Source: Granulosicoccus sp. (GTDB lineage: Bacteria > Pseudomonadota > Gammaproteobacteria > Granulosicoccales > Granulosicoccaceae). Taken from it: 64,000 nt of DNA. Location of the stretch: the NCBI GenBank assembly GCA_020627685.1, contig JAHDGK010000019.1, forward strand, positions 1 through 64,000. Direction: 5' to 3'. Of this stretch, positions 6,893 through 37,182 are shown in pieces. Made by a program: the position numbers and the translations under genes. Positions within the stretch are counted from its first letter, which is position 1. Each line of letters begins with the position of its first letter. The notes below the pieces were generated by a model that saw nothing but the letters and a program-made list of their open reading frames with translations, ran no database searches and was not told the DNA's origin.

Positions 6893-6909
6893 AGGCTGAC
6901 TAGGAGTCG

Positions 6910-21853: not shown

Positions 21854-21864
21854 AGGGAAATACG

Positions 21865-22485
21865 ATGAAACTTAAACTAAACGCGGTGCATAAGTCTGTT
21901 CAGTCGTTTGCTCTATTAGCTTTACTGCTCTCCGTTTTAAGCCTTCAGACTATTAACGCAGCTCAGGCAGAAGACACAGCAAGCACTGACTCATGGCAAC
22001 AAGTTAATGAGGGTAAAGCCATTATCATTATGAGACATGCTTTAGCTCCTGGTATTGGTGACCCTGCAGAATTCAATATTGATCAATGTGAAACTCAGCG
22101 AAACTTATCGGATGTTGGTAGAGCACAAGCTAAAAATATTGGCAATGTGCTTCGTGAAAATGGTGTAGAAAAAGCCGATATCTTGAGTAGTCAATGGTGT
22201 CGTTGTGTTGAAACCGCAGTACTACTGAATTTTGGAGAGCCTGTTGAGTTTCCAGTTATAAATTCGTTTTTCCAAGATAGGAGTACAGAGCCTGCACAAA
22301 CCTCTGCGCTTCGTCAGCACATAAAGGACTGGATTAGCGATGGAGATGAAACGGTTCGGGTTTTAGTTTCACATCAGGTCAACATCAGTGCGCTGACCAG
22401 CACCTACGCTAATTCTGGCGATATGCTGATTGTGACGATGAAAAATAATGAAATAGTCGTCTTAGATCAGATTCAAACTCAGTAA
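21865..22485 (+). CDS. Secreted histidine phosphatase (SixA/PGM-like)
   Basis: A 206-residue protein of the histidine phosphatase superfamily, with signal peptide (hydrophobic 16-32, cleavage near AAQAED). The RH motif is in IIMRHALAPG; the second His is in VSHQVNIS near the end. Cysteines in CETQ and SQWCRCVE could form disulfides in the periplasm. The ATG at 21865 follows GAAGGGA; an earlier ATG at 21850 overlaps the exporter gene. The substrate is unknown. Confidence 0.87.
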   Translation: MKLKLNAVHKSVQSFALLALLLSVLSLQTINAAQAEDTASTDSWQQVNEGKAIIIMRHALAPGIGDPAEFNIDQCETQRNLSDVGRAQAKNIGNVLRENGVEKADILSSQWCRCVETAVLLNFGEPVEFPVINSFFQDRSTEPAQTSALRQHIKDWISDGDETVRVLVSHQVNISALTSTYANSGDMLIVTMKNNEIVVLDQIQTQ

Positions 22486-22497
22486 CTGAAGATTCCA

Positions 22498-23001
22498 ATG
22501 TCTGATACCACTCGTCCATCGATCAAACAACTCGTAGAGCACTGGAAGCTAGAGCCGATGGGTACAGAAAATGTTCTGTTCACACAAACCTACCAGTCTG
22601 CTGTTGCCACTGCCGAAGGCAGGCCTCAATACACCGCCATCATTGCACTCATGACGCGCGATGCCGGCTCATTCTCCGATATGCATAGACTGGCTAGCGA
22701 TGAGCTTTGGCATTTTTATCTGGGTGACCCTATCGAGCTTCTACTGCTTCACCCTGATGGGCGTCATGAACTCATTGTCTTGGGTCAAAATGTGCTTTTT
22801 AGTGAAAAGTTGCAACATCTAGTGCCTGCGGGTACTTGGATGGGGGCCCGCGTCAAACCCGGAGGGGAGTACAGTGTTTTTGGAAATACCATGGCACCGG
22901 GTTTTACTGAAAACGACTTTGAGTTGGGAGACAGAGACGCCCTTAGCCAACAGTGGCCACAGCACAGCGACCTAATAGTCGCTCTAACTCGAACACCCTA
23001 A
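22498..23001 (+). CDS. DUF985 cupin protein
   Basis: A 167-residue single-domain cupin of the DUF985 (Cupin_5) family. The signature FSDMHRLASDELWHFYLGDPIELLLL (residues 60-85) contains His and Glu positions of the first cupin motif; VPAGTWMGARV is the second. The biochemical role of the family is not firmly known; sugar-nucleotide epimerase-like folds are related. It begins 12 bases after the phosphatase gene, probably in one operon. Confidence 0.88.
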   Translation: MSDTTRPSIKQLVEHWKLEPMGTENVLFTQTYQSAVATAEGRPQYTAIIALMTRDAGSFSDMHRLASDELWHFYLGDPIELLLLHPDGRHELIVLGQNVLFSEKLQHLVPAGTWMGARVKPGGEYSVFGNTMAPGFTENDFELGDRDALSQQWPQHSDLIVALTRTP

Positions 23002-23107
23002 CCCCTCCGTAGGGCAGTCCACTTTTAGAAAGAATGTCCGTGCGCATCTTCAGGGCGTGAGATTTAAAAGTTGATACGGATAACGATCTAGATATTTGCG
23101 AATCAGA

Positions 23108-23133
23108 ATATCTATCTATCAATAGGTAGATAT
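23108..23133. promoter_or_regulatory. 26-base near-perfect palindrome
   Basis: ATATCTA-T-CTAT-CA-ATAG-G-TAGATAT has one mismatched pair. Situated about 100 bases before the VOC gene, it looks like an operator for a dimeric repressor of TetR, MarR or ArsR type; no such gene is adjacent. Confidence 0.5.
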
Positions 23134-23151
23134 GCTATCTTCTTTCCTGGA

Positions 23152-23188
23152 GGTCGCGTCGATATTTGTCATTTGGCAAAACGCGACC
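23152..23188 (+). promoter_or_regulatory. Stem-loop in the leader of the VOC gene
   Basis: GGTCGCGT (23152-23159) pairs with ACGCGACC (23181-23188), and inside TTGTC pairs with GGCAA with one wobble. It ends 43 bases before the start codon. It could act at the RNA level or as a second operator; no T-run follows. Confidence 0.45.
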
Positions 23189-23230
23189 CGGAAAAATATG
23201 TTTCAAACCGCGATATAGAGAGAGTTAAGC

Positions 23231-23605
23231 ATGATCGGATATACAACTATAGGTACGAAAAACCTTGAAAAAGCGCTGAGCTTTTATGACGCCTTGCTCG
23301 AGCTGGTTAATGGTAAACAGCTGATGGGCCTGGATCGAATAAAGTTCTACGGAACTGATGCGGGCGGGGCTATGCTTGCTGTCTGCACTCCGGCAGACGA
23401 GTCAGATCACCAGTGTGGTAACGGTCAAATGGTAGCCATACCCGGAGGCTCTCCTGAGGGGGCTGACGCGCTGTATGCAAAAGCCATTGAACTTGGCGCC
23501 ACGGATGAAGGGGCACCCGGACAACGGTTTCCGTTTTTCTACGGCGGCTATGTGAGAGATCCCGATGGAAACAAACTCTGCTTCTTTCACATGACCCCGG
23601 CATAG
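23231..23605 (+). CDS. VOC-family (glyoxalase-like) protein
   Basis: A 124-residue vicinal oxygen chelate protein. It opens IGYTTIGTKNLEKALSFYDALL and closes YVRDPDGNKLCFFH, the usual strand-helix and metal-site strand of the fold. The first metal His expected near residue 5 is Tyr/Thr here, so metal binding is uncertain. GAGAG precedes the ATG. Preceded by an unusual palindrome and a stem-loop that may regulate it. Confidence 0.87.
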   Translation: MIGYTTIGTKNLEKALSFYDALLELVNGKQLMGLDRIKFYGTDAGGAMLAVCTPADESDHQCGNGQMVAIPGGSPEGADALYAKAIELGATDEGAPGQRFPFFYGGYVRDPDGNKLCFFHMTPA

Positions 23606-23718
23606 TTACGTACAACTCGGTTAAGCACTGATATGCTTAGAGCGTCGCCGCAAAAATTTGGATGTCGGCGCTTTAAGCCTTATCAGTCAACTTTACCTCA
23701 CGAGTTTTTGTATCTGTT

Positions 23719-24204
23719 ATGAGTACAATTAATGTTCGCCAAGCCGTCAAATCAGATGCAGAAACTATCCATCGTTTTATTATGGAGCTCGCCATATACG
23801 AAAAGGCTGAGCATGAAGTTAAGTCAACCGTTGCGGACATTGAAGCTACCCTGTTCACAGACGGTTGCACAGCACATGCCCTAATCTGCGAGCTGGATGC
23901 TGAACCGGTGGGCATGGCGGTCTACTTTTTTAACTATTCAACGTGGCTTGGTCAAAATGGTATTTATCTAGAGGATCTATACGTATCCCCTAATAATCGC
24001 GGCCATGGTTTAGGCAAAAAGTTAATGGCCGGGCTCGCCCGTATTGCTGTAGAAAAGAATTGCGGTCGAATGGACTGGAGTGTGCTGGATTGGAATCAAC
24101 CCGCCATTGATGTCTACGATGCGATTGGTGCGAAACCGCAGTCTGAGTGGATAGGGTATAGGCTCTCCGGCACAGCTCTTAATGACTTGGCAGCAACAGA
24201 GTGA
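23719..24204 (+). CDS. GNAT acetyltransferase, diamine N-acetyltransferase-like
   Basis: A 161-residue GNAT protein in the spermidine/spermine N1-acetyltransferase-like subgroup. The diagnostic segment is TWLGQNGIYLEDLYVSPNNRGHGLGKKL (residues 75-102), with RGHGLG binding acetyl-CoA, then RMDWSVLDWNQPAIDVYDAIGA. It is expected to acetylate an amine such as a polyamine or thialysine. The stop overlaps the alternative GTG start of the next gene, so they are translationally linked. Confidence 0.88.
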   Translation: MSTINVRQAVKSDAETIHRFIMELAIYEKAEHEVKSTVADIEATLFTDGCTAHALICELDAEPVGMAVYFFNYSTWLGQNGIYLEDLYVSPNNRGHGLGKKLMAGLARIAVEKNCGRMDWSVLDWNQPAIDVYDAIGAKPQSEWIGYRLSGTALNDLAATE

Positions 24205-24209
24205 GCGAA

Positions 24210-24602
24210 ATGCGTGAATATCATGGCTCATGCCATTGTGGAAACGTGAAGTTTCTTTTGAACACGACCATTTCGGAATTTACAACTTGCGATTGCTCGT
24301 TGTGTGTAAAGAAAAACGCACATATGCTTAAAGTGCATGAGTCTGAGTTCACGCTTCAATCAGATTGGGATACTGTTTCGGAATACCAGTGGAACACTCG
24401 AGTTGCCAGACATTATTTCTGCAAACGTTGTGGCATTTATACATTTCATCGTAAACGTTCAGCGCCTGAGTTTTTTGGTATCAATGTTTACTGTATCGAC
24501 AATTTGGATGCTTCATCCATAAACACGGTTGCGACGGAAGGGGCCAACATGACTATCGAATGCACAGAGCCAAGAGATGTTTGGCCCGGTCCTGTCAGGT
24601 AG
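24210..24602 (+). CDS. GFA-family zinc protein (CENP-V/GFA domain)
   Basis: A 130-residue protein of the GFA (glutathione-dependent formaldehyde-activating-like) family. Its zinc cysteines are GSCHCGNVKF (residues 6-15), CDCSLCVKKNAH (29-40) and CKRCGIYTFH (70-79). The ATG at 24210 gives the usual short lead into CHCG; GTG 24201 would overlap the acetyltransferase stop. Catalysis by this family is doubtful; binding of thiols or adducts is assumed. Confidence 0.87.
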   Translation: MREYHGSCHCGNVKFLLNTTISEFTTCDCSLCVKKNAHMLKVHESEFTLQSDWDTVSEYQWNTRVARHYFCKRCGIYTFHRKRSAPEFFGINVYCIDNLDASSINTVATEGANMTIECTEPRDVWPGPVR

Positions 24603-24609
24603 AAACGAT

Positions 24610-25539
24610 ATGTATAATTTTCATACTGTTGATGTTTTTACATCGCGCAAATTTACCGGAAACTCTTTAGCGATAGTTGAGCAAGCAGACGATCTAACTG
24701 ATTCGCAAATGCAGACTTTGGCCCGCGAATTTAATTTGCCGGAAACTATTTTCATTCAACGCCCTGATAGTCCAGCCAATACAGCCAAAGTAAGAATTTT
24801 TTTGCCATTAAAAGAAATTCCTTTTGCAGGCCATCCCACTATTGGTTGTGCGATTTTTATCGCCCAGAAAATATACGGCGCGGAAGGTGATTTTGAAACC
24901 GAGGTAAGGCTTGAGGAACAAGCAGGTCTTGTTCCCGTGATGGTTGAGCGGAAATCAGGGGAGATAAGAGCTCAACTCACTGCACCAGTTGTTCCGTATC
25001 CTGTCGACGCGCCCGCTAGCGAAGGGCAGCTTGTTCTTGACGTAAAAAATGCAGCAGCAGCTTATGGCTTGGAAGAGGCTGACGTTCTGAAGGAACCGAT
25101 GGGGCCGTCAGCTCATGCTGGTGGACCCACGTTCATTTTTATACCCGTAGCCAGCCGTGAAGCTTTGTCTCGGGCCCGTGCTTGCGAACCGCTTTGCACA
25201 ACGCTGCCTCAGTTGTATGGAGGGACTGGCGGATATCTTTATTGCATCGATTCAGATAGCCGTGTTATCCACGCCAGAATGTTTGCGCCAAGTGGTGGTA
25301 TTCCTGAAGACCCTGCGACAGGCTCAGCCATTGCTTTGTTGGCGTCACAACTCAATGTTTCCGGCTTGCTCCATGAAGGCTCACAGACATTTGAAATACA
25401 GCAAGGCTACGACATGGGCAGACCCAGTCAGATTCAATTGGAAATTGATGTGGCTGGCACGCGTTTGGAAGCCGTGCGTGTTTCCGGTACCAGTGTTCCT
25501 ATCAGCCAAGGTCAAATAGTTGTTCCTGACAACAATTAA
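24610..25539 (+). CDS. PhzF-family isomerase-like protein
   Basis: A 309-residue PhzF-family protein. The fold has two hot-dog-like halves; key parts are DVFTSRKFTGNSLAIVE (residues 8-24), FNLPETIFI with the conserved Glu (about 46), FAGHPTIGCA (about 75-84) and GIPEDPATGSA (about 236-246). True PhzF makes phenazine precursors, but no other phenazine gene is here, so the substrate is open. The ATG at 24610 lies just after the GFA stop. Confidence 0.9.
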   Translation: MYNFHTVDVFTSRKFTGNSLAIVEQADDLTDSQMQTLAREFNLPETIFIQRPDSPANTAKVRIFLPLKEIPFAGHPTIGCAIFIAQKIYGAEGDFETEVRLEEQAGLVPVMVERKSGEIRAQLTAPVVPYPVDAPASEGQLVLDVKNAAAAYGLEEADVLKEPMGPSAHAGGPTFIFIPVASREALSRARACEPLCTTLPQLYGGTGGYLYCIDSDSRVIHARMFAPSGGIPEDPATGSAIALLASQLNVSGLLHEGSQTFEIQQGYDMGRPSQIQLEIDVAGTRLEAVRVSGTSVPISQGQIVVPDNN

Positions 25540-25754
25540 GACGCATGGCCGGCTTGCTCCAATGCTTATCTGAAGAATCCGTGTAGTTTTAATATGAGCC
25601 TTAAGGTGCCTTCAACATACAGTGGATCAATAGATTGGGTAGAAGTGTATAGACAGCACTATTCAATTGACACGATCGAAACCCGACTGTCCGGGTACAA
25701 AAAAACGCTGTTCCGCTAACTGCAGAATAGTCATTTTTTGCTCAAACTTACGGA

Positions 25755-25760
25755 TATAAT
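25755..25760 (+). promoter_or_regulatory. TATAAT box just before the patatin gene
   Basis: A consensus -10 hexamer ends nine bases before the ATG at 25769, with no clear -35 box and no Shine-Dalgarno sequence after it. If used, the transcript would begin about at the start codon and be leaderless. Confidence 0.35.
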
Positions 25761-25768
25761 CTGTGCCA

Positions 25769-27568
25769 ATGGACGCACATGATCAAATTTCTGTTATCGA
25801 GGCATTGGCTTGTTTAGGGGATCTACCCCTCAACCAATTGTCTGAATTGATCAAGCGGCTTGAGTCCAAACGTATAGCGGCTCAGCAGCCGGTATATTCA
25901 AAAGGAGACGATGCGGATTGGGTCTATTTCGTCGGTTCTGGACGCTTAGCCAGATTTGATGAAGAAACCTACCAGGGCCAGCTTTCTCGAGGTGATATGG
26001 CCGGGTGGGACAGCTTTTATCACCAGTGCCCACGTGATCACACTCTGTTAGCGCAAAATGACTGTTTCGTTTACGGCCTTGACAGGCAAAATCTGCAAGA
26101 ACTGATTAAGGATGTGCCGGAAATACTCGCTGGATTTCTCAGCGCGGCCACGCCTGTTCCGACAACAGGTAAGCCTGCATCGAATGTGGCCGTCAATCGG
26201 CAGATCGGCGTTTTTATGTTCGAGGATTTGGAATCGGTCAGCGAACTCGTTACGCAAAAATTTATGCAGAGCTATTCCGATAATCCTCGAGTGGCCAGTT
26301 TTAATTGCGAGGCTTTTTGCCAATTGGCAGGTATTGGTCAAGCGTATGAGAATCTGTCCGGTCACTTAGCGGCCGATGTATTTGCTCATTTGGAGAGCGA
26401 TCACGACACTGTTGTCTATTTAGCGAACGCTCATGAGCCGCAAACCTGGATGGATAAAATTGTGCACCAGGTGGACACGCTAGTCGTCATTGTTAAAGAT
26501 GGAACAAGCGCATTACCTGCGTGGTTTGAAAACCTGCTTAAAGCAACAGGCAAGCGACCAGGCCTTGTCGTGCTGCGCACAGGATCGGCTGAATTCGGTC
26601 AATCGTCCAGAGCGCTTTGGAATGTGTTCGAACCGGAATGGCACTACCGCTTGCACATTGATGATACTCGTCGATGGGCATCGGTTGGTCGAATGGCGCA
26701 GGGGCGGGCTATTAACCTCGTGCTTTCCGGCGGCGGTTGTCTGGGCGCCATCCATTGTGGAATTTTGCAAGCTTTAAATGACGGTAATTTTCCCATCGAC
26801 ACCATTGGCGGAACTTCGGCCGGGGCCGGAGTTGCGATTGGCTATGCGCTTGGTGATACGACTGAAGAAATTTCCAGAAAATTTCGTTATGCGTTTACTG
26901 AGCAGAAGCCGTTTAGCGCTTACACGCTACCGTTCTACGGATTGCTCAGCCCTAAGAAGCTAGATCGTGTTCTGAAGGAAATCTCTGAAGATCGCTGGTT
27001 GGAGGAGAGTCATATACCGATTCATGCAACCGTTACAAATCTCACCCAATCCACTGCGGAAGTGCTGACAACCGGGCCAGCCTGGGAAGCCATGCGGATG
27101 TCGGGATCATTACCAGGGATATTGCCGCCGTTCATCCGAAACGGCTATTCCTACATAGACGGTGGGGTAATGAACAATTTTCCGATCTCAGTCGCTAAGC
27201 AGAAGTACGGAGGACGCTTCGTCGGTGTGACGTTTAAAATCCCCAGTGATGACCTCATACAGTGTCGTTACGAGGACCGCCCAAATTCGTTTCAGGCCGT
27301 GTTGTCTAAGCTCAATCTAGCGAAAGCAAACGACTACCCCGGTTTGGGAGGGGTTTTGGCAAATTCCCTAATGCTAAGCAACTCCTCTGTTCTTAAGGAC
27401 GCGATCAACCGTGTTGACTTGCTCCTGCATCCGCCGGTGCCTCATAACGTCGGTGTGACCTCGTTTGAGCGTTTTGACGAACTTTACGAAATAGGTGTAG
27501 AGTACGGACGTCAGTATATCGCTGACCTAAAAAAGTCCGGATCCGCGGACGATTGGATCGATTTTTAA
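25769..27568 (+). CDS. Patatin-like phospholipase with N-terminal cNMP-binding-type domain
   Basis: A 599-residue NTE-type lipase. Residues 12-125 are a cyclic-nucleotide-binding-type beta barrel, but the phosphate cassette is changed (GDMAGWDSFYHQCPRDH instead of GExALL.xxPRxA), so it may not bind cAMP. Residues about 145-300 are a Rossmann-like linker. The patatin domain has the oxyanion loop SGGGCLGAIH (about 320), nucleophile Ser350 in GGTSAG and Asp464 in DGG. It should cleave phospholipid or lysophospholipid at the membrane. First gene of a six-gene signalling cluster. Confidence 0.92.
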   Translation: MDAHDQISVIEALACLGDLPLNQLSELIKRLESKRIAAQQPVYSKGDDADWVYFVGSGRLARFDEETYQGQLSRGDMAGWDSFYHQCPRDHTLLAQNDCFVYGLDRQNLQELIKDVPEILAGFLSAATPVPTTGKPASNVAVNRQIGVFMFEDLESVSELVTQKFMQSYSDNPRVASFNCEAFCQLAGIGQAYENLSGHLAADVFAHLESDHDTVVYLANAHEPQTWMDKIVHQVDTLVVIVKDGTSALPAWFENLLKATGKRPGLVVLRTGSAEFGQSSRALWNVFEPEWHYRLHIDDTRRWASVGRMAQGRAINLVLSGGGCLGAIHCGILQALNDGNFPIDTIGGTSAGAGVAIGYALGDTTEEISRKFRYAFTEQKPFSAYTLPFYGLLSPKKLDRVLKEISEDRWLEESHIPIHATVTNLTQSTAEVLTTGPAWEAMRMSGSLPGILPPFIRNGYSYIDGGVMNNFPISVAKQKYGGRFVGVTFKIPSDDLIQCRYEDRPNSFQAVLSKLNLAKANDYPGLGGVLANSLMLSNSSVLKDAINRVDLLLHPPVPHNVGVTSFERFDELYEIGVEYGRQYIADLKKSGSADDWIDF

Positions 27569-27601
27569 CGGCAACTCTAGGTAATCAGGTAGCAACTGAC
27601 G

Positions 27602-27943
27602 ATGGCACTAGGAATTGAAAAGCATGTCAGTAACGGCGTTACGACTCTCAAACTTACTGGAGACTTAGACACCGCTACAGCCGGTCAGTTGGAAAGTACC
27701 GTTAAGGAAATTATCGCCGGTGAGCGCCCTGGCATCGTCTTTGACATGGGCGGAATATCGTATGTGTCGAGTTTCGGGTTGCGCGTGATCGTCTACACCT
27801 CCAAAGCTATGCGTGCTCACGGCGATCGGTTTGCCATGCACAGTATCCAGCAGGACGTGATGGAGATTCTAAACATCAGTGGGCTTAACCGATTGCTCAA
27901 GGTCGTTGAGACTCAAGATGATGCTATTGCCTTAATCGACTGA
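27602..27943 (+). CDS. STAS-domain anti-sigma-factor antagonist
   Basis: A 113-residue single STAS domain, RsbV/SpoIIAA type. The phosphorylated serine is expected in GGISYVSSFGLRVIV (about residues 50-64), where VSSFG replaces the common DSSG. In partner switching it is phosphorylated by an RsbW-type kinase and restored by a PP2C phosphatase; both are encoded downstream. Its start is 33 bases after the patatin stop. Confidence 0.92.
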   Translation: MALGIEKHVSNGVTTLKLTGDLDTATAGQLESTVKEIIAGERPGIVFDMGGISYVSSFGLRVIVYTSKAMRAHGDRFAMHSIQQDVMEILNISGLNRLLKVVETQDDAIALID

Positions 27944-27959
27944 TCCCGGAGTATCTTCG

Positions 27960-28388
27960 ATGACTGCGGCCGAAAAATCGATAAGCAATTCTATAGAAAA
28001 ACTGGAAGAGCTGGTCAGCTGGTTGACCCAATGGCTTTCAGACCATGAGGTTTCCGGCTCCATTGCGTACAAGCTACGTTTTGCGATGGAAGAAATCACC
28101 ACTAACGCGGTGTATTACGGATTCCCGACCGGAACGAGCGGGACTGTCACTGTGCGTATTCATGAAGAAGTACGCCATGAGAAGTATCGTTTAGACATTC
28201 TTGACGATGGAGAGGCTTTTAATCCTCTAGAGGAGGCGCCTGAAGCCGACCCAACATTGGAACTCGACGATCGTGAATTAGGTGGTTTGGGAGTTTTTCT
28301 GGTTAAAAATCTCAGTGAAGATTGCAGTTATAAGCGTGAGAATGGATGGAATCATTTGACCATCGTTATCGATGCGGAATCAGCTTAG
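27960..28388 (+). CDS. RsbW-like serine kinase (HATPase)
   Basis: A 142-residue ATP-binding protein of the RsbW/SpoIIAB group. The N box is MEEITTNAVYYGF (about residues 43-55), the first G box LDDGEAFNP (about 80) and the second GGLGVFLVKNL (about 106). It should phosphorylate the STAS protein and hold an output partner when the STAS protein is phosphorylated. No sigma factor gene lies nearby, so the partner is unknown. It starts 17 bases after the STAS gene. Confidence 0.92.
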   Translation: MTAAEKSISNSIEKLEELVSWLTQWLSDHEVSGSIAYKLRFAMEEITTNAVYYGFPTGTSGTVTVRIHEEVRHEKYRLDILDDGEAFNPLEEAPEADPTLELDDRELGGLGVFLVKNLSEDCSYKRENGWNHLTIVIDAESA

Positions 28389-28442
28389 TCGTTGTATTTT
28401 TGGCTGCGTATTTGGGTAGATATCAATGATGGAATTGAAATA

Positions 28443-29648
28443 ATGTACACACTCCTACGGTCGGGAAAAGCTGCTCTAATGGCTGCTATGGCACTTGCAG
28501 CCTTATCGGCAAACGCCGAAACAAAAATAGGTGCACCATTTGCTCTCTCAGGCTCGGTTGCGGCATTAGCCGCTGATATGAAAGCCGGTGCTGCGCTCGC
28601 AGCTACGCACGTAAACGCACAGGGTGGAGTGCTGGGTGAGAACTACGAGTTGCTATACAGGGATTCCGCGTGTGAGCCTGGTAAAGCCGTTGAGGTCGTT
28701 AAATCGCTGATTGAAGAAGACGGTGTCAGTGCGCTCGTTGGCCCTGTGTGTTCTGGGGCCACACTCAGGCAGGCGCAATCTGTCTCTATTCCGGCGGGAG
28801 TGGTTACCCTTTCGGTGGCCTCAGCATCTCATCTCATCACCAATTTGCGCGATCGGGATTTAGTTTTTAGAACAGCCCTATCGGACTCCTATAAGGGTGA
28901 GGCGATGGCCGCCTATGTTTTCGAGCAAGGTGTCTCGTCTTTATCGGTGAGTTTTGCCAGCGATGCGTACAATACAAGCTTGGCAAAAGTTTTTACACAA
29001 GCTTTTGAAAAGCTTGGTGGGGAGGTTGTCATCAATCAGGTTCATCAGCCTGAGAAATCTGATTACAAACGAGAGGTTGACGCCTTGGCAGGTGGCTCAG
29101 AAAATCTAGCCTTGTTTGCTTACTACGGCTCGAGTGGCACCCAGCTCTTGAAAGATGCTGCTGTGGGCGGAAAAATAACAACGGTATTCGGATCAGATGG
29201 CCTATTGTCGCAAGAACTTATCGATACTATCGACGCGGCGTTGTTGTCTGGTATTAGTATTTTAACCACTTCAGCAGATGAATCACGTCAGTCATTCAAG
29301 ATATGGCAATCACTAGCGGATGAAGCCGGTATACCTGCTTCGGGACCTTTCGTTGCAAACTCCTACGACGCAGCCTTTATGATGGCTTTAGCGATTGAGG
29401 CAGTGCAATCGTCAAACCGCGACATGATATCTGAAGGCTTACGCCAGATATCCGGGCCGGAGGGAGAGGTCATTTATCCCGGAGAATTTGCCAAAGCAGC
29501 AGCCATTTTGAAATCGGGTGGTAGCGTCAACTATGAAGGAGCTTCTGGCACAGTGGACTTTGATGCCAAAGGGGATATTGCCGGTTTCGTTAGTATTAAC
29601 AAAGTCGTCGATGGGCAGTGGGTTGCACAACTGATGACGTCTCAATAA
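28443..29648 (+). CDS. LivJ-like periplasmic ligand-binding protein
   Basis: A 401-residue periplasmic protein of the branched-chain amino acid (Peripla_BP_6) family. The signal peptide comprises SGKAALMAAMALAALSANAETK with cleavage before ETK; the mature part opens IGAPFALSGSVAALA. Lobes meet near LVGPVCSGATL (about 100) and FVANSYDAAFM (about 308). ATG 28443 is chosen; a frame from 28392 would add 17 residues before the signal. No ABC transporter is nearby: it is followed 20 bases on by a membrane kinase and probably acts as its sensor. Confidence 0.92.
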   Translation: MYTLLRSGKAALMAAMALAALSANAETKIGAPFALSGSVAALAADMKAGAALAATHVNAQGGVLGENYELLYRDSACEPGKAVEVVKSLIEEDGVSALVGPVCSGATLRQAQSVSIPAGVVTLSVASASHLITNLRDRDLVFRTALSDSYKGEAMAAYVFEQGVSSLSVSFASDAYNTSLAKVFTQAFEKLGGEVVINQVHQPEKSDYKREVDALAGGSENLALFAYYGSSGTQLLKDAAVGGKITTVFGSDGLLSQELIDTIDAALLSGISILTTSADESRQSFKIWQSLADEAGIPASGPFVANSYDAAFMMALAIEAVQSSNRDMISEGLRQISGPEGEVIYPGEFAKAAAILKSGGSVNYEGASGTVDFDAKGDIAGFVSINKVVDGQWVAQLMTSQ

Positions 29649-29667
29649 GTCTGCGCAAGGGCTTACG

Positions 29668-31236
29668 ATGTCGTTTTTCAAGCGTTTGTGGTTCAGGGCA
29701 GGAGTTCAGCTGAAATTTTTGCTGATCATCGTGCCTCTTATGCTTGCACTTACCCTGCTGGGTGTTGCGCTTGTTCAGTTAAAGGCGAGTGAAACAGCCA
29801 CTCAACGTGCAATTACACAATTTGACAAAGTGGGCATCAGCGCGTCAGATGCGCTGGCTGTAGAATTTTGGAACTACAACGTCACGCAGGCTCAAGCGAT
29901 CTTAGAAGCACTCTTGTTAATTCCTGATGTGCTTAGCGTCGCCACAGTTGAGATTGCAGACAATACGCCGGTTGAAAACAGCGGGTTCATGTTCAGCTTT
30001 GAAGTACCCAAAGAGAACATATCGGTCGGAGTGCTCGAGGATACAAAAGCGATTCAATCTGCTGCCTTTGACATCGTGAACAACAAAGGTACCGCGGAGG
30101 CTGAAGTTATCGGGCAACTCACCATCGAGTACAGTTTGCATAGTCTGCTGGCGAAAAACCGATCTGATTTATACCGTACGCTTCTTGCCTCTTTACCCAT
30201 AGCCTTAGCGCTTATTATTGGAACCACAGTCGCACTTAACAGGCTTATCTTAAAGCCCATTTCTGCGGTGACCAAAAGCTCCTTGGCCGGTTATAACAAT
30301 CTCTCACCAGATTATGAATATGAACCTGTCCAGTGGGATTCCGGGGATCAGCTAGGCGTATTGGTCTCCTCTTTTAATGAATTGCGCGAACGGCAAATTC
30401 AAAACACGCGACAGCTAGAGCAAGAACAAAAAGCATTGGCGCAGCACGCAATAGAAATGGAGGAGCTGTCCACAGTTGCGCAGGATGCGAGAGATGAGGC
30501 AGTCGCCGCAAATGCCGCTAAATCCAGGTTTTTAGCCGTCATGAGTCATGAGCTTAGAACACCGTTAAATACCATCATCGGCTTGAGCGAAACCATAGAA
30601 AAAAACTACGACAGGCTTAGTGACGACAAACGAAAAAGCAGTTTAGGGCGAATAAAATCAGCTGGCCGGCATCTATTATCTATGATCAATGAGATTCTAG
30701 ATTTGTCGAAAATCGAAGCTGGAAAAATGGAGCTTGAACTTGCTGAGAGCTCCATTCAGGACATATTGGCCGATTCTGTATCTATGTCTGAATCACTTAC
30801 GACCGATAACAAGAATAAACTTTCGCTCGATGTCGCGTCCGACTTACATACTGCGTGGGTAGACGGTCGGCGAGTGAAACAAATTATGCTCAACTTAATA
30901 TCTAACGCCACGAAGTTTACAAAAGACGACGACATACAAATCGTTGCACGGAACGCATCCGACTCTACTATCCAAATCTCGGTAGAAGATCACGGTATCG
31001 GTATTCGTGAAGAGCAGCAGGAAAAATTATTCCAAGACTTTCAACAAGCAGAAAACTCTACGGCGAGAAAGTACGGTGGTACCGGTCTAGGCTTGTCTAT
31101 AAGTCGTAAGCTTGCCAGAGCTATGGGAGGAGACATCACTTTGTGGTCAGAGAGTGGGGTCGGCACGCGTTTTACGGTAGTTCTTCCAGCCTTCTCCGGT
31201 CAGACCAACGACTCTAAAGCCCACAAGGTTTTATAA
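29668..31236 (+). CDS. Membrane sensor histidine kinase
   Basis: A 522-residue kinase. First membrane helix at 15-38, periplasmic region 39-168, second helix 170-192, then HAMP and a coiled coil. His294 lies in VMSHELRTPLNTIIG. ATP-binding boxes are NLISNATKFT, DHGIGI and GGTGLGLSIS. There is no receiver domain, so the phosphate should pass to the receiver-PP2C protein, whose gene starts five bases after this stop. The periplasmic region is short enough to act through a bound partner such as the LivJ-like protein. Confidence 0.93.
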   Translation: MSFFKRLWFRAGVQLKFLLIIVPLMLALTLLGVALVQLKASETATQRAITQFDKVGISASDALAVEFWNYNVTQAQAILEALLLIPDVLSVATVEIADNTPVENSGFMFSFEVPKENISVGVLEDTKAIQSAAFDIVNNKGTAEAEVIGQLTIEYSLHSLLAKNRSDLYRTLLASLPIALALIIGTTVALNRLILKPISAVTKSSLAGYNNLSPDYEYEPVQWDSGDQLGVLVSSFNELRERQIQNTRQLEQEQKALAQHAIEMEELSTVAQDARDEAVAANAAKSRFLAVMSHELRTPLNTIIGLSETIEKNYDRLSDDKRKSSLGRIKSAGRHLLSMINEILDLSKIEAGKMELELAESSIQDILADSVSMSESLTTDNKNKLSLDVASDLHTAWVDGRRVKQIMLNLISNATKFTKDDDIQIVARNASDSTIQISVEDHGIGIREEQQEKLFQDFQQAENSTARKYGGTGLGLSISRKLARAMGGDITLWSESGVGTRFTVVLPAFSGQTNDSKAHKVL

Positions 31237-31240
31237 GACT

Positions 31241-32452
31241 ATGGACAGTGATATGCCCGCCTATAAAATTCTGATTGTTGATGATATTGAAAACAATCGG
31301 TTTACTTTAGACATCATGTTGTCAGTACTGGGTGAGTTCGATGTGGATGAGGCCGAGTCGGGCCCTGAAGCGTTAGAAAAACTCGAACAAACAACCTACG
31401 ACCTAGTGCTGCTCGATATCATGATGCCAGGCATGACGGGTATTGAGGTACTGGAAAAACTCGATTTAGCAACGTCTAGCTTAAACACAAAATTTATCGT
31501 TGTGTCTGCTTTGCAGGATATGGAAATCATTGTTAAGGCGCTAGAGCTCGGGGCGTTAGATTACCTGCCTAAGCCTATTGAAGAGGCACTTCTCGCCGCA
31601 CGATTAAAGCAGTTATTAGAGCGTCGCGAAGCTGATGAAGAACTACGTAAAAACAAGGAGCGAATTGATTCAGATTTAAAGAAAGCGGCGGATATTCAAA
31701 AATCATTGTGTCCAGAACAAACCCTTTCTTTCAAGTCTTCGAGCGGAGAGATTTGCTGCGAGTTGGCTGGCAGTATGCAGCCTGCATACGAGGTGGGCGG
31801 GGACTTTTATGACTACTTTGAACTGCCTGATGGCAACATCGTCGTGGTCATCGCCGATGCTTGTGGAAAAGGAGCTCCTGCTGCCATATACGCCAGTAGA
31901 GTTCACGATTTGCTCAGAATGGTTGCATTTAACAAAGCATCGGAGACAAAAAGTAACGGCGAGGAAAGCTTGCTTGCCATGCTAACTGCCGTTAACACGA
32001 TTCTGAGCGAAAACAACGATGCGTGTTGGTTCGTAACCACATGGGCCGGTATTTATTCCCCAGAAGATCGTGTGTTGACTTGGTGTTCGGCTGGGCATTG
32101 TGATGCGTTGTTGCAGAATCCGGATAACAGTGTAGAACCATTGAGTATAGAAACGGGTTTGCCTATCGGGCTTGACGAGATGTTCTCAGCAAAGGTTGAC
32201 TCCAGAATCCTGTCGGCAGGTTCTAAGTTGCACTTGTATACAGACGGCATCACTGAGCATAGAAAAGAAGACGGAGATTTTGTTGGGGAGGACGGCCTTA
32301 TCCAGCTGTTTGAAAAACTTGCTCCGAAAAATTTGTCGATTAAAGATAACGTTAAAGCCGTAACAGACAGCGTAGTGGGATTGAATTCTAAGCAGCCGCC
32401 CGAGGATGACATTACGCTGTTAAGCCTTTCTGTTATGGATACAAGTTCTTAA
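31241..32452 (+). CDS. Response regulator with PP2C/SpoIIE phosphatase domain
   Basis: A 403-residue RsbU-type regulator. The receiver (8-128) has Asp59 in LVLLDIMMPG and Lys in YLPKPIEE. A helical linker with the IQKSLCPEQ signature leads to the PP2C domain (about 175-400). Metal-binding motifs are intact: GGDFYDYFEL, ADACGKGAPAA and PEDDITLLSL. When phosphorylated it should dephosphorylate the STAS protein. The last gene of the cluster; ten bases from the convergent kinase gene. Confidence 0.94.
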   Translation: MDSDMPAYKILIVDDIENNRFTLDIMLSVLGEFDVDEAESGPEALEKLEQTTYDLVLLDIMMPGMTGIEVLEKLDLATSSLNTKFIVVSALQDMEIIVKALELGALDYLPKPIEEALLAARLKQLLERREADEELRKNKERIDSDLKKAADIQKSLCPEQTLSFKSSSGEICCELAGSMQPAYEVGGDFYDYFELPDGNIVVVIADACGKGAPAAIYASRVHDLLRMVAFNKASETKSNGEESLLAMLTAVNTILSENNDACWFVTTWAGIYSPEDRVLTWCSAGHCDALLQNPDNSVEPLSIETGLPIGLDEMFSAKVDSRILSAGSKLHLYTDGITEHRKEDGDFVGEDGLIQLFEKLAPKNLSIKDNVKAVTDSVVGLNSKQPPEDDITLLSLSVMDTSS

Positions 32453-32461
32453 AGAAGGTAA

Positions 32462-33874
32462 CTATTGCTCTGCTAACGGTAGATGTAATGTTGCTCTGAA
32501 ACCCGGCGTTAGATTCTCAAGCTTCAGTGCGCCGCCATGTCCTAATGCCACCGACTGAACAATAGATAGGCCTAATCCAATACCTCCAGTATTTCGATTT
32601 CTTGACGTCTCTAACCGGGTAAAAGGTGTAAGCACCGCGTCCAGTTTTTCTTCAGGGATTCCCGGGCCGGAGTCGTCAACATTGATATCGACGTAGCCCT
32701 CGCTTATCACGCTAATGCTGAGTCTTGCGTTTCCAGCATATTTTAAAGCATTGTCTATCAAGTTAACGATAGCTCTTCTTAGCGCTACGCGTCGGCAATT
32801 TAGAATTATTGCATCATCGAACTCGCGAAACGATACGTCTTTTTTCTGGTCGGAGTAATCATCAGAAATACTGGAGACAAGAGCGGTTAAATCGACGGGT
32901 GCCATCTCTTCTACCGAAGAGACATCTTTTGCCCAGCGTAGAATCTCTTCTGTCATGACGGTTAAATCATCAAGAGTGGCTATGAATTTGTCTCTTCCGT
33001 TTTCAGCAGGAATATCTTCCGCTCTTATTCGCAAAGCTGTAATAGGTGTTCGTAAATCATGTCCGACTGCGCGTAACGTAGATCGCTGCGTATCGATTAG
33101 CCTTTCGAGGTTTTCCTGCATACCATTAAAGGCCTTTATCGCCACTTGAATATCATGTGGGCCCGATACCGGAACACGCTGTGCATTGACGCCACGACCG
33201 AAACGTTTTGCAGCACTGGTAAGGTCTTGAATGGGTCTGACTAAACGTCGGGTGAGCACAAGGGCTGCGAGAATGGCGGCCAACAGAGTAATCCCAGTTG
33301 CTGCAAACGCACCTAATGTAAATGTTGCATCCGCAGTATGTGGGTGCATTGCGTTGAGCCAGATTCCCGGGCTAACTTCAGCGGAGGCTATAGCTTCTAA
33401 CTTGCCGGGAGGCGGAGGACGGCCTCTGTTTGAAGGCCTATCGCCGGATTGTCTACCGTGGGGTAGTGGGGGTCTAATGTTTTGCCCTCTACCCACTTTG
33501 CGATTTATTAGAACGGCATCAATATCTCGCCCAAGAGCTTCAGACAGCGATTCAGACAGTTTTTTCTGATAGGAAGGAACCTCCTCAGGATTCCAAGCAA
33601 GTCCTGCAAGATTCTCTACCGACAAAAATATATTGCCACGGCCATTGGATAAGCGACTGACCAATAGAGGTAATTCTTCTTTTGTGTGGGGCGGCAGATT
33701 TTTCGCAGCGTTGGTGAAATCATCAATCAGCATTGAGTATCGATCTGTCCTGATACTCAGTTTACGATCACCCATCAAAAACAGAATGTTGAGTATCTGC
33801 GAGGTTAAGATCGTAACCACGAGTAACAGAATAAACTGTCCCGACAAGTTAAATCGTGAGAACCAAGTCTTCAC
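32462..33874 (-). CDS. EnvZ/CpxA-type sensor histidine kinase
   Basis: A 470-residue kinase. First membrane helix at 11-31, periplasmic domain to about 185 with a proline/arginine/glycine-rich stretch (GRPPPPG and neighbours, residues 135-155), second helix about 186-208 and HAMP (LVRPIQDL). The phospho-His is in VGHDLRTPITALRI; ATP boxes are NLIDNALKYA, DSGPGI and GGIGLGLSIV. Its start overlaps the regulator stop by four bases. The signal is unknown. Confidence 0.93.
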   Translation of the reverse strand: MKTWFSRFNLSGQFILLLVVTILTSQILNILFLMGDRKLSIRTDRYSMLIDDFTNAAKNLPPHTKEELPLLVSRLSNGRGNIFLSVENLAGLAWNPEEVPSYQKKLSESLSEALGRDIDAVLINRKVGRGQNIRPPLPHGRQSGDRPSNRGRPPPPGKLEAIASAEVSPGIWLNAMHPHTADATFTLGAFAATGITLLAAILAALVLTRRLVRPIQDLTSAAKRFGRGVNAQRVPVSGPHDIQVAIKAFNGMQENLERLIDTQRSTLRAVGHDLRTPITALRIRAEDIPAENGRDKFIATLDDLTVMTEEILRWAKDVSSVEEMAPVDLTALVSSISDDYSDQKKDVSFREFDDAIILNCRRVALRRAIVNLIDNALKYAGNARLSISVISEGYVDINVDDSGPGIPEEKLDAVLTPFTRLETSRNRNTGGIGLGLSIVQSVALGHGGALKLENLTPGFRATLHLPLAEQ

Positions 33875-34593
33875 GATTGAATATCGTCTGTATTAGTGAC
33901 CAGTTTGTAGCCATCACCTCTAACTGTTTTGATTAGTCTAGGAGAAGATGCATCAATTTCTACTTTTCGCCGTAGACGAGATATCGTGTTGTCGATACTG
34001 CGTTCATAGGCATGCGTCTCGCGACCTTGTAGTAAGCGCATCAAGTCGTCTCTGGACAGTACCTCATCAGGATGGGCGAGCAGTACTAGCAGCAATTTAA
34101 GTTCTCCACTGCTCAGAGACACAATCAAACCATCATTTCGAGTCAGTTCACTCTGCGATTCATTCAACCGCCAATGACCGAATTCGGGAAAGTCTTTGCG
34201 TTTTACAGAGTAGTCTTCACGGCCATTGACTCGTCGTAGCACGGCGCGAATTCTTGCAACTAGTTCGCGGGGGTTAAACGGCTTAGTGACGTAATCATCT
34301 GCACCCATTTCCAGGCCGACAATTCTGTCAGTGTCGTCTGCAAGTGCCGTTAAAAGAATGACAGGTGTTCCGTCGTTTTCTCGTATGAAGCGACACAGGC
34401 TTAGCCCGTCTTCGCCAGGCATCATAATGTCGAGAATGATTAAATCAATGTCTCCACTTTGTAGGCGGGCTCTTGCCGTTTCAGCATTTGCAGCCGATTC
34501 GGCAATGAATCCTGAACGCTCTAGGTTGGTGCACAAAGAATCATTGATTTCTGAATCATCATCTACGACCAGTATCTTCTGCCGATCTAGCAA
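33871..34593 (-). CDS. OmpR-family response regulator
   Basis: A 240-residue regulator: the receiver (residues 5-118) has the acidic pair DDDSE and phospho-Asp in LIILDIMMPGEDG, with Lys in YVTKPFNPRE. The winged helix (about 140-233) includes LSSGELKLLLVLLAHPDEVLSRD and the recognition segment RSIDNTISRLRRKVE. It is translated together with the kinase and binds DNA when phosphorylated. Targets are not evident. Confidence 0.94.
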   Translation of the reverse strand: MLDRQKILVVDDDSEINDSLCTNLERSGFIAESAANAETARARLQSGDIDLIILDIMMPGEDGLSLCRFIRENDGTPVILLTALADDTDRIVGLEMGADDYVTKPFNPRELVARIRAVLRRVNGREDYSVKRKDFPEFGHWRLNESQSELTRNDGLIVSLSSGELKLLLVLLAHPDEVLSRDDLMRLLQGRETHAYERSIDNTISRLRRKVEIDASSPRLIKTVRGDGYKLVTNTDDIQS

Positions 34594-34725
34594 CGTGGAT
34601 TACTCCAGCCAAAGGAGTGAGAGTTTTGCACAAGCTTTATGCTTAAACCACGCTACGATTGTCGCATTCCGACGCTTATTTGATACAGACTGATACAAAG
34701 TAGGCCGTCTGCCACAAAAACCGAT

Positions 34726-35037
34726 TTAAATGCTTCCTTTCCTTTCAATTACCAACACCCTCGCTTCTCCCACCGGGTGCGCCACGTGTTCGTCACCCTC
34801 TTCAGCATGGAAAATGTCGCCCTCATTAAGTTGATAGGAGACAACTTTAGCGTTCTGTCTTGTTCGCATTTCAACTTGTCCGCGTAGTACGACAAACACC
34901 TCAGGCCCATCATTCACGTGCCATTGGTACGGTGTGCTTGTCCAATGTAATTTGATACTGGCGTTTTCGATATCATCGATCGGCAAGGCATCCCAAGGTC
35001 GAGAACCGGTGTAGGTTTCTGGTTTAATTACTTTCAT
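34726..35037 (-). CDS. Small cupin protein
   Basis: A 103-residue single-domain cupin. The metal-site strands are WHVNDGPEVFVVLRGQVEMR (His and Glu, residues 39-58) and HAEEGDEHVAHP (72-83). It is divergent from an Lrp/AsnC-type regulator, 113 bases apart, and may be controlled by it. Substrate unknown; such proteins can be isomerases or sensors. Confidence 0.85.
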   Translation of the reverse strand: MKVIKPETYTGSRPWDALPIDDIENASIKLHWTSTPYQWHVNDGPEVFVVLRGQVEMRTRQNAKVVSYQLNEGDIFHAEEGDEHVAHPVGEARVLVIERKGSI

Positions 35038-35150
35038 CTGGCGTTACCCATGCTTGGAGTCAATGTTGACTCACAAGCTAACAGCTTTGCCTGTTGGGGC
35101 AACCAGTCGATGTGACGTAATATGGCGTCATATCGTTGGAATTTTGATTT

Positions 35151-35597
35151 ATGGAACTCGATAGAATTAATCAAAAGATTATTGCGCAGCTTCAGACCAA
35201 TGCGCGTATGCCGACGGCTGAAATTGGACGGCGTATTGGTTTATCAAGAACGGCAGTACAGGAGAGAATAAACAGGCTTGAATCTCAGGAATTGATACAA
35301 GGATATCGTGTGGTTTTAAACGAGCACGCAGGCTTGGATGTCAGGGCGCTGGTCTTCGTGAAATTTTCAACAAAGCCGTGTGCTCCCATCGTCAGTCGTT
35401 TATTGAAAATTGATGGCGTGACGGAAATTTATTCGCTCGCAGGAAGTTGGGACGCCATTGTGAAAGTGGCGTGTCGCTCAGCCGAGGCGCTCTCCACACT
35501 GAATGATGAAATAGCCGCAGACGCGTCAGTTTGTGAGACAACCTCCCAACTCATTTTGAGCGAACATCCCGCGCTTCAGGAGCAGGGGGAGACGTGA
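35151..35597 (+). CDS. Lrp/AsnC-family regulator
   Basis: A 148-residue regulator. The helix-turn-helix is at residues 4-50 (INQKIIAQLQTNARMPTAEIGRRIGLSRTAVQERINRLE). The ligand-binding RAM domain follows (residues 65-140), with VTEIYSLAGSWDAIVKV typical. It should bind amino acids or related effectors as an octamer. The neighbouring divergent cupin gene is its likeliest target. Confidence 0.92.
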   Translation: MELDRINQKIIAQLQTNARMPTAEIGRRIGLSRTAVQERINRLESQELIQGYRVVLNEHAGLDVRALVFVKFSTKPCAPIVSRLLKIDGVTEIYSLAGSWDAIVKVACRSAEALSTLNDEIAADASVCETTSQLILSEHPALQEQGET

Positions 35598-35601
35598 TGT
35601 G

Positions 35602-35649
35602 TGTCAGCGCCGTCAACTGGCGGACGCAGCTTAGAAAGTTAAGCTGACA
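35602..35649 (+). terminator. Multi-stem structure after the Lrp-type gene
   Basis: TGTC (35602-35605) pairs with GACA (35646-35649) and encloses GCC/GGC and AGCTTA/TAAGCT (35628-35645) stems, a compact three-way fold. It begins four bases after the stop. No T-run directly follows. It may end the lrp-like transcript. Confidence 0.4.
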
Positions 35650-35809
35650 GCACCATTATTCGGGTCTTGGTGACTATTTTTGCGCTGCCCAGACTCAAGA
35701 ATGTCTTAGATTGTCTGGGGAAAGCGGTGTAAAATCATCGCATGGGCTTGCAACATTTAAATTCTGAAACTGACAAGCTAGTGGGTGCGAAGCGTCGAGG
35801 TCGCAGGTA

Positions 35810-36979
35810 GTGGTAGCCATCTCGCACAATCTATTTCTGGTGTTCGCATCTATAGCAATATCGCTGTTGGCTGCGTTCACAGGATTAGCCATTACCAACA
35901 ATATTGCCTCCCTCCCGGAATATAAGCGTAAAACCCTTGTCATCATGTCCGCATTTATTTTAGGCGGCGGTATCTGGTCTATGCATTTTGTGGCAATGCT
36001 CGCCCATGAGTTTGCAGTCCCTGTGTACTACGATTCCTTACAGACGCTGGGCTCGGCTCTTATCGCAATATTGGTCGTCGGAACAGCGCTGCTCATGTTG
36101 CATTATTCCGCGAGAACTCCCGCTCGATTGATTGCGTCGGGATTGGTTCTGGGCGGTGGTGTCATCGTGATGCATTACGTTGGCATGTACGCCATCCGCG
36201 GCATGATTCCCCAGTTCAACCTACTATCGGTCGCGCTGGCGGTGCTGGTGGCGGCAATTGCCGGTATCACGGCCATCAGGGTCGCGTACGGCGAACGCAC
36301 CCGTCAAAATATCATCTTGGGTTCAGTGGTCTTTGGTCTGTCCGTTGCGGCCGTTCACTTTGCGGCAATGCTGGGTACTACTTTTCTGTTAGATGAGAGC
36401 TTCCAGCCGCTGCCGGTGGTCATGGCTAATCATACGTTGGCGCTAACCGTCACCATTGCCTCTTTTGTTATCTGCGGGACATTTCTATTAGTAACGACGA
36501 ACTTTCTCACAAACGTTCCGATAACTAGGGTAGCCCCAGCGGCATCTGACCTGAGCCCGCCGGCAACGCCAAAGCCTGCAGCGAGCGATACGTCTGCCCC
36601 GGACTCAACGGCATCGACTGTCCAATTGCCTTTCGAAAAAAATAAGAAAATTAACTATCTTGATCTTGACCAGGTGGCAGCTGCCAGAGCCGACGGGCAT
36701 TACACGCAGCTGTACACGAAATCGGGGCTGTTATTCTGCCCATGGTCGATAAGCGAGATTGACAAAAAAATGTCGCCTCACGGTTTCCATAGAACGCATC
36801 GCAGCTACCTCGTCAATATCCATGCTGTGAATGCTTTTGAAAAGCGAGGCGAAACCGGTGTCTGTTTATTTGAAGATTATCCCTCGCTAGAGAGTGTGCC
36901 GGTGAGTCGCAATCGGGTTATCGGCTTGCTACAAGTGCTGGAAAATAATTCCGGCGATGCTATCCACGAACCTGTCTAA
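35810..36979 (+). CDS. MHYT-LytTR membrane regulator, CoxC/CoxH-like
   Basis: A 389-residue integral membrane DNA-binding protein. The N-terminal 225 residues form seven helices with MHYT-type motifs: MHFVAMLAHEF, MHYVGMYA and VHFAAMLG. These are proposed to hold copper and sense CO, O2 or NO. A Pro/Ala/Ser linker (about 240-270) leads to a LytTR DNA-binding domain (about 278-378; KKINYLDLDQVAAARADGHYT, FHRTHRSYLVNI). The same layout occurs in CoxC and CoxH of Oligotropha carboxidovorans. Placed 235 bases before coxM, it is the probable regulator of the CO operon. GTG start. Confidence 0.88.
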   Translation: MVAISHNLFLVFASIAISLLAAFTGLAITNNIASLPEYKRKTLVIMSAFILGGGIWSMHFVAMLAHEFAVPVYYDSLQTLGSALIAILVVGTALLMLHYSARTPARLIASGLVLGGGVIVMHYVGMYAIRGMIPQFNLLSVALAVLVAAIAGITAIRVAYGERTRQNIILGSVVFGLSVAAVHFAAMLGTTFLLDESFQPLPVVMANHTLALTVTIASFVICGTFLLVTTNFLTNVPITRVAPAASDLSPPATPKPAASDTSAPDSTASTVQLPFEKNKKINYLDLDQVAAARADGHYTQLYTKSGLLFCPWSISEIDKKMSPHGFHRTHRSYLVNIHAVNAFEKRGETGVCLFEDYPSLESVPVSRNRVIGLLQVLENNSGDAIHEPV

Positions 36980-37094
36980 ATTGAGTCTGCCGGTTCCATT
37001 GTTAGACTGAGCGAGTACGGTTGGATTAGTTTGATTCGCAATTGGTTGCGTTAAAATACTTCAACTATTTCATAAAGATAGGTGTTATCTGCAC

Positions 37095-37105
37095 GAACGT
37101 CGTTC
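37095..37105. promoter_or_regulatory. Candidate operator upstream of coxM (site 1)
   Basis: The 11-base palindrome GAACG-T-CGTTC, followed by a related ACGAG, lies 109 bases before coxM. LytTR proteins read paired short elements with about ten-base spacing, so this region is a reasonable binding place; no promoter boxes can be fixed. Confidence 0.35.
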
Positions 37106-37164
37106 ATTCAAACGAGCGTAGTTGGTGAATTAGACACCGTGTTCCTGCAATAGCGCTTAGCCGA

Positions 37165-37182
37165 TTACGGCTTTTATCGTAA
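37165..37182. promoter_or_regulatory. Candidate operator or leader hairpin upstream of coxM (site 2)
   Basis: TTACG-N8-CGTAA lies 31 bases before the coxM start. It could be a protein site near the promoter or an RNA hairpin in the leader. Confidence 0.35.

What the first reader, a model, noticed from the sequence alone, without database searches (positions are those of the whole stretch)
25769..32452. Candidate new system: partner switching linked to a patatin lipase and a LivJ-like sensor
Six same-strand genes with gaps of 5-55 bases make a full chain: periplasmic ligand-binding protein, membrane histidine kinase, receiver-PP2C phosphatase, RsbW-like kinase, STAS antagonist, and a patatin phospholipase with an altered cNMP-type domain. 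There is no sigma factor and no transporter. Catalytic residues are intact in the kinase, phosphatase and lipase. The simplest reading is that an extracellular ligand alters STAS phosphorylation and so controls a lipase or another target through protein contact instead of transcription.
Basis: partly seen in the sequence, partly recalled or inferred. Interest (0 to 1): 0.8.

Follow-up and report, generated by a model that had tools for sequence, protein, structure and literature searches.

The report
Lipase wired to a phosphorylation switch
A bacterium carries one block of genes that joins an outside-the-cell sensor and a protein-phosphorylation switch to a fat-splitting enzyme, and comparison with three relatives suggests that the switch protein acts on the enzyme itself and not on gene expression, which now needs a laboratory test.

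Summary
The six genes are real, intact and same-strand: patatin (first), STAS, RsbW-like kinase, LivJ-like protein, histidine kinase, receiver-PP2C; gaps 33, 16, 54, 19 and 4 bases. The genome is a Granulosicoccaceae relative. The cluster is rare: 3 of 48 genomes of its order plus one Leucothrix-labelled MAG. Patatin and STAS are together in all four copies, in three upstream contexts. One relative keeps patatin-STAS with the phospho-serine but lacks the other four genes at the locus, and no RsbW homologue was found anywhere in its genome. So the smallest retained unit is patatin+STAS, and unphosphorylated STAS is probably its working form. The patatin's cyclic-nucleotide domain has lost the pocket glutamate (Trp in 4/4 copies, Glu in 55/55 homologues), so its old ligand input was probably abandoned. 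A PP2C-RsbW-LivJ-HK block without patatin exists elsewhere, so the input chain is a reusable module. Best reading: partner switching with an enzyme output, like SiaABCD of Pseudomonas but with a lipase as effector. Contact, lipase activity and ligand are untested. The HK is seen in two copies and PP2C in one, because other contigs end. New variant of a known kind.

The parts
25769..27568 (+). Patatin-family lipase of the cNMP-patatin (NTE-like) type: degenerate cNMP domain, alpha/beta middle domain, patatin domain (an alternative GTG start is at 25763)
   Evidence: Pfam cNMP_binding 1.5e-10 and Patatin 5.7e-29; catalytic Ser codon at 26816 and Asp codon at 27158; pocket Glu replaced by Trp, codon at 26006; orthologues start at the ATG 25769
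27602..27943 (+). STAS-domain antagonist with conserved phospho-acceptor serine
   Evidence: Pfam STAS 5.9e-19, TIGR00377 over cut-off; Ser57 (codon at 27770) aligns with the SpoIIAA phospho-serine and is conserved in 4/4 orthologues
27960..28388 (+). RsbW-like serine kinase (HATPase_c_2)
   Evidence: Pfam HATPase_c_2 9.2e-23; matches solved RsbW 6m36
28443..29648 (+). LivJ-like periplasmic binding protein with signal peptide, no permease genes beside it
   Evidence: Pfam Peripla_BP_6 3.7e-34; matches Leu/Ile/Val-binding proteins; nearest relatives elsewhere (39-42%) lie next to LivH/LivM-like permeases
29668..31236 (+). Membrane histidine kinase with periplasmic region, HisKA and HATPase_c
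   Evidence: Pfam HisKA and HATPase_c; best NCBIfam similarity TorS, LuxQ and BarA, all below cut-off
31241..32452 (+). Response regulator with PP2C (SpoIIE-type) phosphatase output
   Evidence: Pfam Response_reg and SpoIIE; full-length but sub-threshold match to Pseudomonas RssB and to solved 3eq2

Best explanation
A sigma-independent partner-switching system whose output is a cytoplasmic lipase. A periplasmic ligand bound by the LivJ-like protein changes the activity of the membrane histidine kinase, which phosphorylates the receiver of the PP2C protein. The PP2C removes phosphate from the STAS protein, and the RsbW-like kinase puts it back. Unphosphorylated STAS binds the cNMP-patatin protein, most likely through its N-terminal part where the cyclic-nucleotide pocket has been lost, and sets its lipase activity (activation is more likely than inhibition, by analogy with SiaC-SiaD). 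Shown: the parts, their motifs, the constant patatin-STAS pair, loss of the cNMP pocket residue, and retention of patatin+STAS after loss of the kinase. Inferred: ligand sensing, the direction of phosphate flow, STAS-patatin contact, and the effect on lipase activity.
For: Patatin directly precedes STAS in 4/4 orthologous loci with three different upstream neighbours (PhzF-like in the window and L033; HIT-like in L035; amidase in L034), so they travel together. Patatin and STAS orthologues are in the same 3 of 48 genomes of the order. In G006/L033 the pair persists (74% and 71% identity, serine intact), but RsbW, LivJ, HK and PP2C are gone from the locus, and no RsbW homologue was found in a 97% complete genome. 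So STAS has a use other than RsbW, and it is exerted unphosphorylated. STAS in that lineage still has low dN (0.19 at near-saturated dS) but evolves faster relative to patatin than in the others (linked versus unlinked branch lengths, 2dlnL 15-18, 4 d.f., P about 0.002-0.005), as expected if the RsbW interface was released. The cNMP phosphate-cassette Glu is Trp in 4/4 STAS-linked copies and Glu in 55/55 other homologues. Precedent: SiaC binds and activates SiaD (PMC8457831; PMC7647112).
Against: No interaction or activity data. Only four copies, all from metagenome-type or draft genomes. Receiver-PP2C is seen in one copy and HK in two, because contigs end; no PP2C orthologue was found elsewhere in G002 or G791. 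Adjacency and co-retention could reflect shared pathway membership without contact. RsbW may also bind a sigma factor encoded elsewhere.
Confidence: 0.58

Rival explanations
1. Ordinary anti-sigma partner switching: the RsbW-like protein holds a sigma factor (for example RpoS) encoded elsewhere, STAS releases it, and the patatin is a downstream or merely co-transcribed target.
For: The Gram-negative homologues CrsR-CrsA and HsbR-HsbA control RpoS (PMC6482189). The receiver-PP2C matches the Pseudomonas RssB model over its whole length, though below cut-off. RsbW-like proteins are often anti-sigma factors.
Against: No sigma gene in or beside the cluster. STAS is kept with patatin in a genome where no RsbW homologue was found, where an anti-anti-sigma role makes no sense. 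Patatin is in every copy. The dead cNMP pocket is specific to the STAS-linked patatins.
Confidence: 0.2
2. STAS acts on a third target (membrane, envelope or transport protein) in the same pathway as the lipase; patatin and STAS are functionally linked but do not touch.
For: Many STAS proteins have unknown targets (SypA, RbaV, HmpV; PMC8256260). MlaB-type STAS proteins act on a lipid transporter (own knowledge).
Against: No third gene is shared by all four loci. The altered cNMP domain points to a changed input of the patatin itself.
Confidence: 0.15
3. The six genes are two neighbouring units: patatin-STAS and an unrelated RsbW-LivJ-HK-PP2C sensor chain that sits next to it by chance or by recent insertion.
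For: L033 has only the first unit. A PP2C-RsbW-LivJ-HK block without patatin exists elsewhere (L087).
Against: Patatin-STAS-RsbW-LivJ in the same order in three loci with two or more different contexts, including the most divergent one (L034, 63% patatin identity), so the long form looks ancestral and L033 looks like a loss. Gaps are 54 bases or less. L087 has its own STAS genes nearby.
Confidence: 0.07

Closest known systems
SiaABCD of Pseudomonas aeruginosa
   Same: One operon joins a PP2C phosphatase, a kinase, a phosphorylated antagonist and an enzyme; the unphosphorylated antagonist binds and activates the enzyme (PMC7647112, PMC8457831).
   Different: The effector there is a diguanylate cyclase, here a patatin lipase. 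SiaA is itself membrane-bound; here a separate LivJ protein, HK and receiver-PP2C feed the switch.
HsbR-HsbA (P. aeruginosa) and CrsR-CrsA (Shewanella)
   Same: A receiver/PP2C/kinase activity and a STAS antagonist in a Gram-negative bacterium.
   Different: Those act on RpoS and FlgM (PMC6482189); here kinase and phosphatase are separate proteins and no sigma factor is linked.
RbaVWY of Rhodobacter capsulatus; SypE-SypA of Vibrio fischeri
   Same: Receiver-PP2C (RbaY), STAS and RsbW-like parts; STAS is probably the output and no sigma partner was found (PMC3999984, PMC8256260).
   Different: Their STAS targets are unknown; here a candidate target is encoded beside STAS.
Bacterial cNMP-patatin (NTE-like) phospholipases
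   Same: Domain order and catalytic dyad; 24-31% identity over most of the length.
   Different: The pocket glutamate of the cNMP domain is Trp; linked to STAS.
LuxP-LuxQ and TorT-TorS binding-protein/kinase pairs
   Same: A periplasmic binding protein encoded next to a membrane HK whose kinase core is most like TorS and LuxQ.
   Different: LivJ-type binding protein; the HK periplasmic region matches no solved structure; output is PP2C, not DNA binding.

Membership tests
RsbW/STAS/PP2C partner-switching systems | HATPase_c_2 kinase with N and G boxes | tested here: met
   Pfam 9.2e-23; aligned with RsbW 6m36
RsbW/STAS/PP2C partner-switching systems | STAS protein with phospho-acceptor serine | tested here: met
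   Aligned with SpoIIAA; conserved in 4/4
RsbW/STAS/PP2C partner-switching systems | PP2C (SpoIIE) phosphatase | tested here: met
   Pfam SpoIIE 2.3e-38; in this genome's copy only
Anti-sigma (RsbW/SpoIIAB proper) systems | Sigma factor gene in the cluster | tested here: not met
   None in 20000-38000
Anti-sigma (RsbW/SpoIIAB proper) systems | Kinase binds a sigma factor | not testable with these tools
   RsbW and SpoIIAB equivalog models are matched far below cut-off (32.8 of 145, 22.1 of 135 bits)
SiaABCD-type enzyme-output partner switch | Enzyme effector encoded with the switch | tested here: met
   Patatin beside STAS in 4/4 copies
SiaABCD-type enzyme-output partner switch | Effector is a diguanylate cyclase | tested here: not met
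   No GGDEF gene among the six; patatin instead
SiaABCD-type enzyme-output partner switch | Antagonist binds and regulates the effector | not testable with these tools
   Needs binding and enzyme assays
cNMP-patatin (NTE-like) phospholipases | Gly-rich loop, GXSXG serine and DG(G/A) aspartate | tested here: met
   Ser352 and Asp466 invariant in all 61 aligned sequences
cNMP-patatin (NTE-like) phospholipases | cNMP phosphate-cassette glutamate | tested here: not met
   Trp82 in 4/4 orthologues, Glu in 55/55 other homologues
E. coli RssA-RssB pair | RssA and RssB equivalog models over cut-off | tested here: not met
   RssA 59.3 of 272 bits; RssB_Pseudo 94.1 of 700; RssB 75.2 of 329
LivJHMGF ABC transporters | Permease and ATPase genes with the binding protein | tested here: not met
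   None in the cluster, whereas the nearest relatives lie beside LivH/LivM-like permeases

The most novel reading that the evidence does not exclude
The first partner switch that controls a phospholipase: a periplasmic ligand, through a STAS protein, allosterically switches a patatin whose cyclic-nucleotide domain has been turned into a STAS-docking site.
Probability: 0.4. Interest if true: 0.75.

Novelty: new variant of a known kind. Interest (0 to 1): 0.55.

Why it matters
The target of the STAS protein is unknown in several studied Gram-negative switches (SypA, RbaV, HmpV). Here the probable target is encoded next to STAS, and a natural minimal pair (patatin+STAS only, in G006) makes the question directly testable with two purified proteins. 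If true, partner switching would reach membrane-lipid enzymes, and a cNMP domain would have changed from small-molecule to protein input.

Tried and rejected
Fold prediction of the patatin with the five-row alignment was poor (mean pLDDT 50, pTM 0.48). Only the middle domain (about 146-300) was confident; it resembled SIMIBI-type alpha/beta NTPase folds weakly, and the patatin part matched PlpD. It is used only to describe the domain. A single-chain patatin-STAS docking was considered (the frames coincide through three stops) and not run, because the fold output gave no inter-domain error and the alignment is shallow. PDB search of the HK sensor region found nothing. Plasmid search found only distant cNMP-patatins (below 60%) and no evidence that the cluster is plasmid-borne. 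About 29 further homologues from 398 genomes of the phylum showed no STAS, RsbW or PP2C within about 1.5 kb, so the patatin-STAS link is not general in the family. RsbW homologues from 369 genomes of the class had STAS or PP2C beside them in most cases, and no patatin within about 1.5 kb. Literature searches for patatin with STAS domain, partner switching or anti-sigma factor antagonist gave no paper; subscription journals are mostly missing from that library. Promoter and terminator scans were uninformative.

Full report
Observation. The six genes are present with intact frames and the stated small gaps; Pfam confirms each domain. On the DNA the order is patatin, STAS, RsbW-like, LivJ-like, HK, receiver-PP2C. 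The patatin probably starts at ATG 25769, since the orthologues begin there; residue numbers below count from the upstream GTG at 25763. Promoter and terminator scans are at chance level, so the operon is inferred from spacing.

Where it is. Related contigs are labelled Granulosicoccus, Granulosicoccaceae and Leucothrix. All 48 held genomes of the order were searched: an orthologous patatin occurs in 3 (this genome, G002, G006), and an orthologous STAS in exactly the same 3 (the next STAS hits are 24-27% identical). A fourth copy lies in a MAG labelled Leucothrix (L034), outside the order set. Nearly every genus member also has a 690-830 aa NTE-like patatin with no STAS or RsbW beside it.

Copies compared. 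L035/G002: patatin-STAS-RsbW-LivJ, contig ends in LivJ. L034: patatin-STAS-RsbW-LivJ-HK, contig ends in HK. L033/G006: patatin-STAS, then NUDIX, HAD and dehydrogenase genes. Upstream neighbours differ: PhzF-like in the window and L033 (read from the L033 end sequence), HIT-like in L035, amidase in L034. No full-length receiver-PP2C orthologue was found in G002, G006 or G791, the genome of L034; for G002 and G791 this may be an assembly gap.

Natural minimal form. In G006 (97% complete) no RsbW homologue was found; the HATPase_c_2 hits there are weak and nearly all inside histidine-kinase-length frames. Yet patatin (74% identity to the window) and STAS (71%) persist, with all catalytic residues and the STAS serine. 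dN between window and G006 STAS is 0.19 at near-saturated synonymous change, so selection still holds it. Relative to patatin, STAS evolves faster in this lineage: unlinked branch lengths fit better than linked ones for all three tree shapes (2dlnL 15.0, 17.0 and 17.6; 4 degrees of freedom; P about 0.002-0.005), with the L033 STAS branch at 0.41-0.47 against 0.22-0.27 for patatin. The simplest inference is that RsbW was lost, its contact surface on STAS was released, and the remaining function of STAS is exerted unphosphorylated and with the patatin. With four sequences this is suggestive, not proof.

cNMP domain. In 61 aligned cNMP-patatin proteins the phosphate-cassette Gly-Glu is Gly-Trp in all four STAS-linked proteins and Gly-Glu in all 55 others with that position aligned (20 of 20 after removing those above 60% mutual identity). 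The pocket Arg is His in L034, but that position also varies in the other homologues. The patatin Ser and Asp are invariant. So the enzyme looks active while its cyclic-nucleotide input looks lost.

Input half. The LivJ-like protein is most similar (39-42%) to binding proteins next to LivH/LivM-like permeases, so it looks like a transporter protein recruited as a sensor. In another gammaproteobacterial genome (L087) a receiver-PP2C, RsbW, LivJ-like protein and an HK with a TorS-type sensor domain stand in a row without patatin, with STAS genes nearby. The LivJ-HK-PP2C-RsbW chain is therefore a reusable module, and the patatin is the lineage-specific output.

Mechanism. Ligand, LivJ, HK, receiver-PP2C, STAS (opposed by RsbW), patatin. 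SiaABCD is the proven precedent for a partner switch acting on a co-encoded enzyme by direct binding (PMC7647112; PMC8457831). Other STAS outputs in Gram-negatives have unknown targets (PMC8256260; PMC3999984). I put direct STAS control of the patatin at 0.58, with activation by the unphosphorylated form as the preferred version.

Membership and novelty. It meets the defining sequence features of partner-switching systems, but no sigma factor is linked. It is not SiaABCD (different enzyme) and not RssA-RssB (equivalog models far below cut-off). No paper linking patatin with STAS or partner switching was found in the open library. I class it as a new variant of a known kind: enzyme-output partner switching with a lipase as candidate effector.

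Limits. Few copies, draft genomes, no interaction data, a poor fold model, and the search of named genomes used close-relative patterns only.

Noticed in passing
L084 (G000:C18:8000-19000), 5176-7353: A second partner switch in the same genome: a haem-NO-binding (HNOB) protein, a PP2C phosphatase and an RsbW-like protein inside an exopolysaccharide locus, with a STAS gene about 9 kb away at G000:C18:22742. Possibly NO-controlled polysaccharide production.
   Followed up: partly
L108, L109, L110 (other Granulosicoccaceae genomes): Receiver-PP2C, STAS, RsbW-like and a family-2 glycosyltransferase in a row, again with no sigma factor seen: another possible enzyme-output partner switch.
   Followed up: partly
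L087, 6760-13183: Receiver-PP2C, RsbW, LivJ-like protein and HK with TorS-type sensor domain, plus several STAS genes on the other strand: the same input chain without patatin.
   Followed up: yes
G000:C3:196946-198721 (L086): A second cNMP-patatin with an intact cNMP pocket motif (GE...R), present in most genomes of the genus and without STAS: a good control protein.
   Followed up: partly
window 32462-34593 (-): An OmpR-type response regulator and histidine kinase run convergently into the end of the PP2C gene.
   Followed up: no
window 35810-36979 (+): A protein combining MHYT membrane sensor repeats with a LytTR DNA-binding domain.
   Followed up: no
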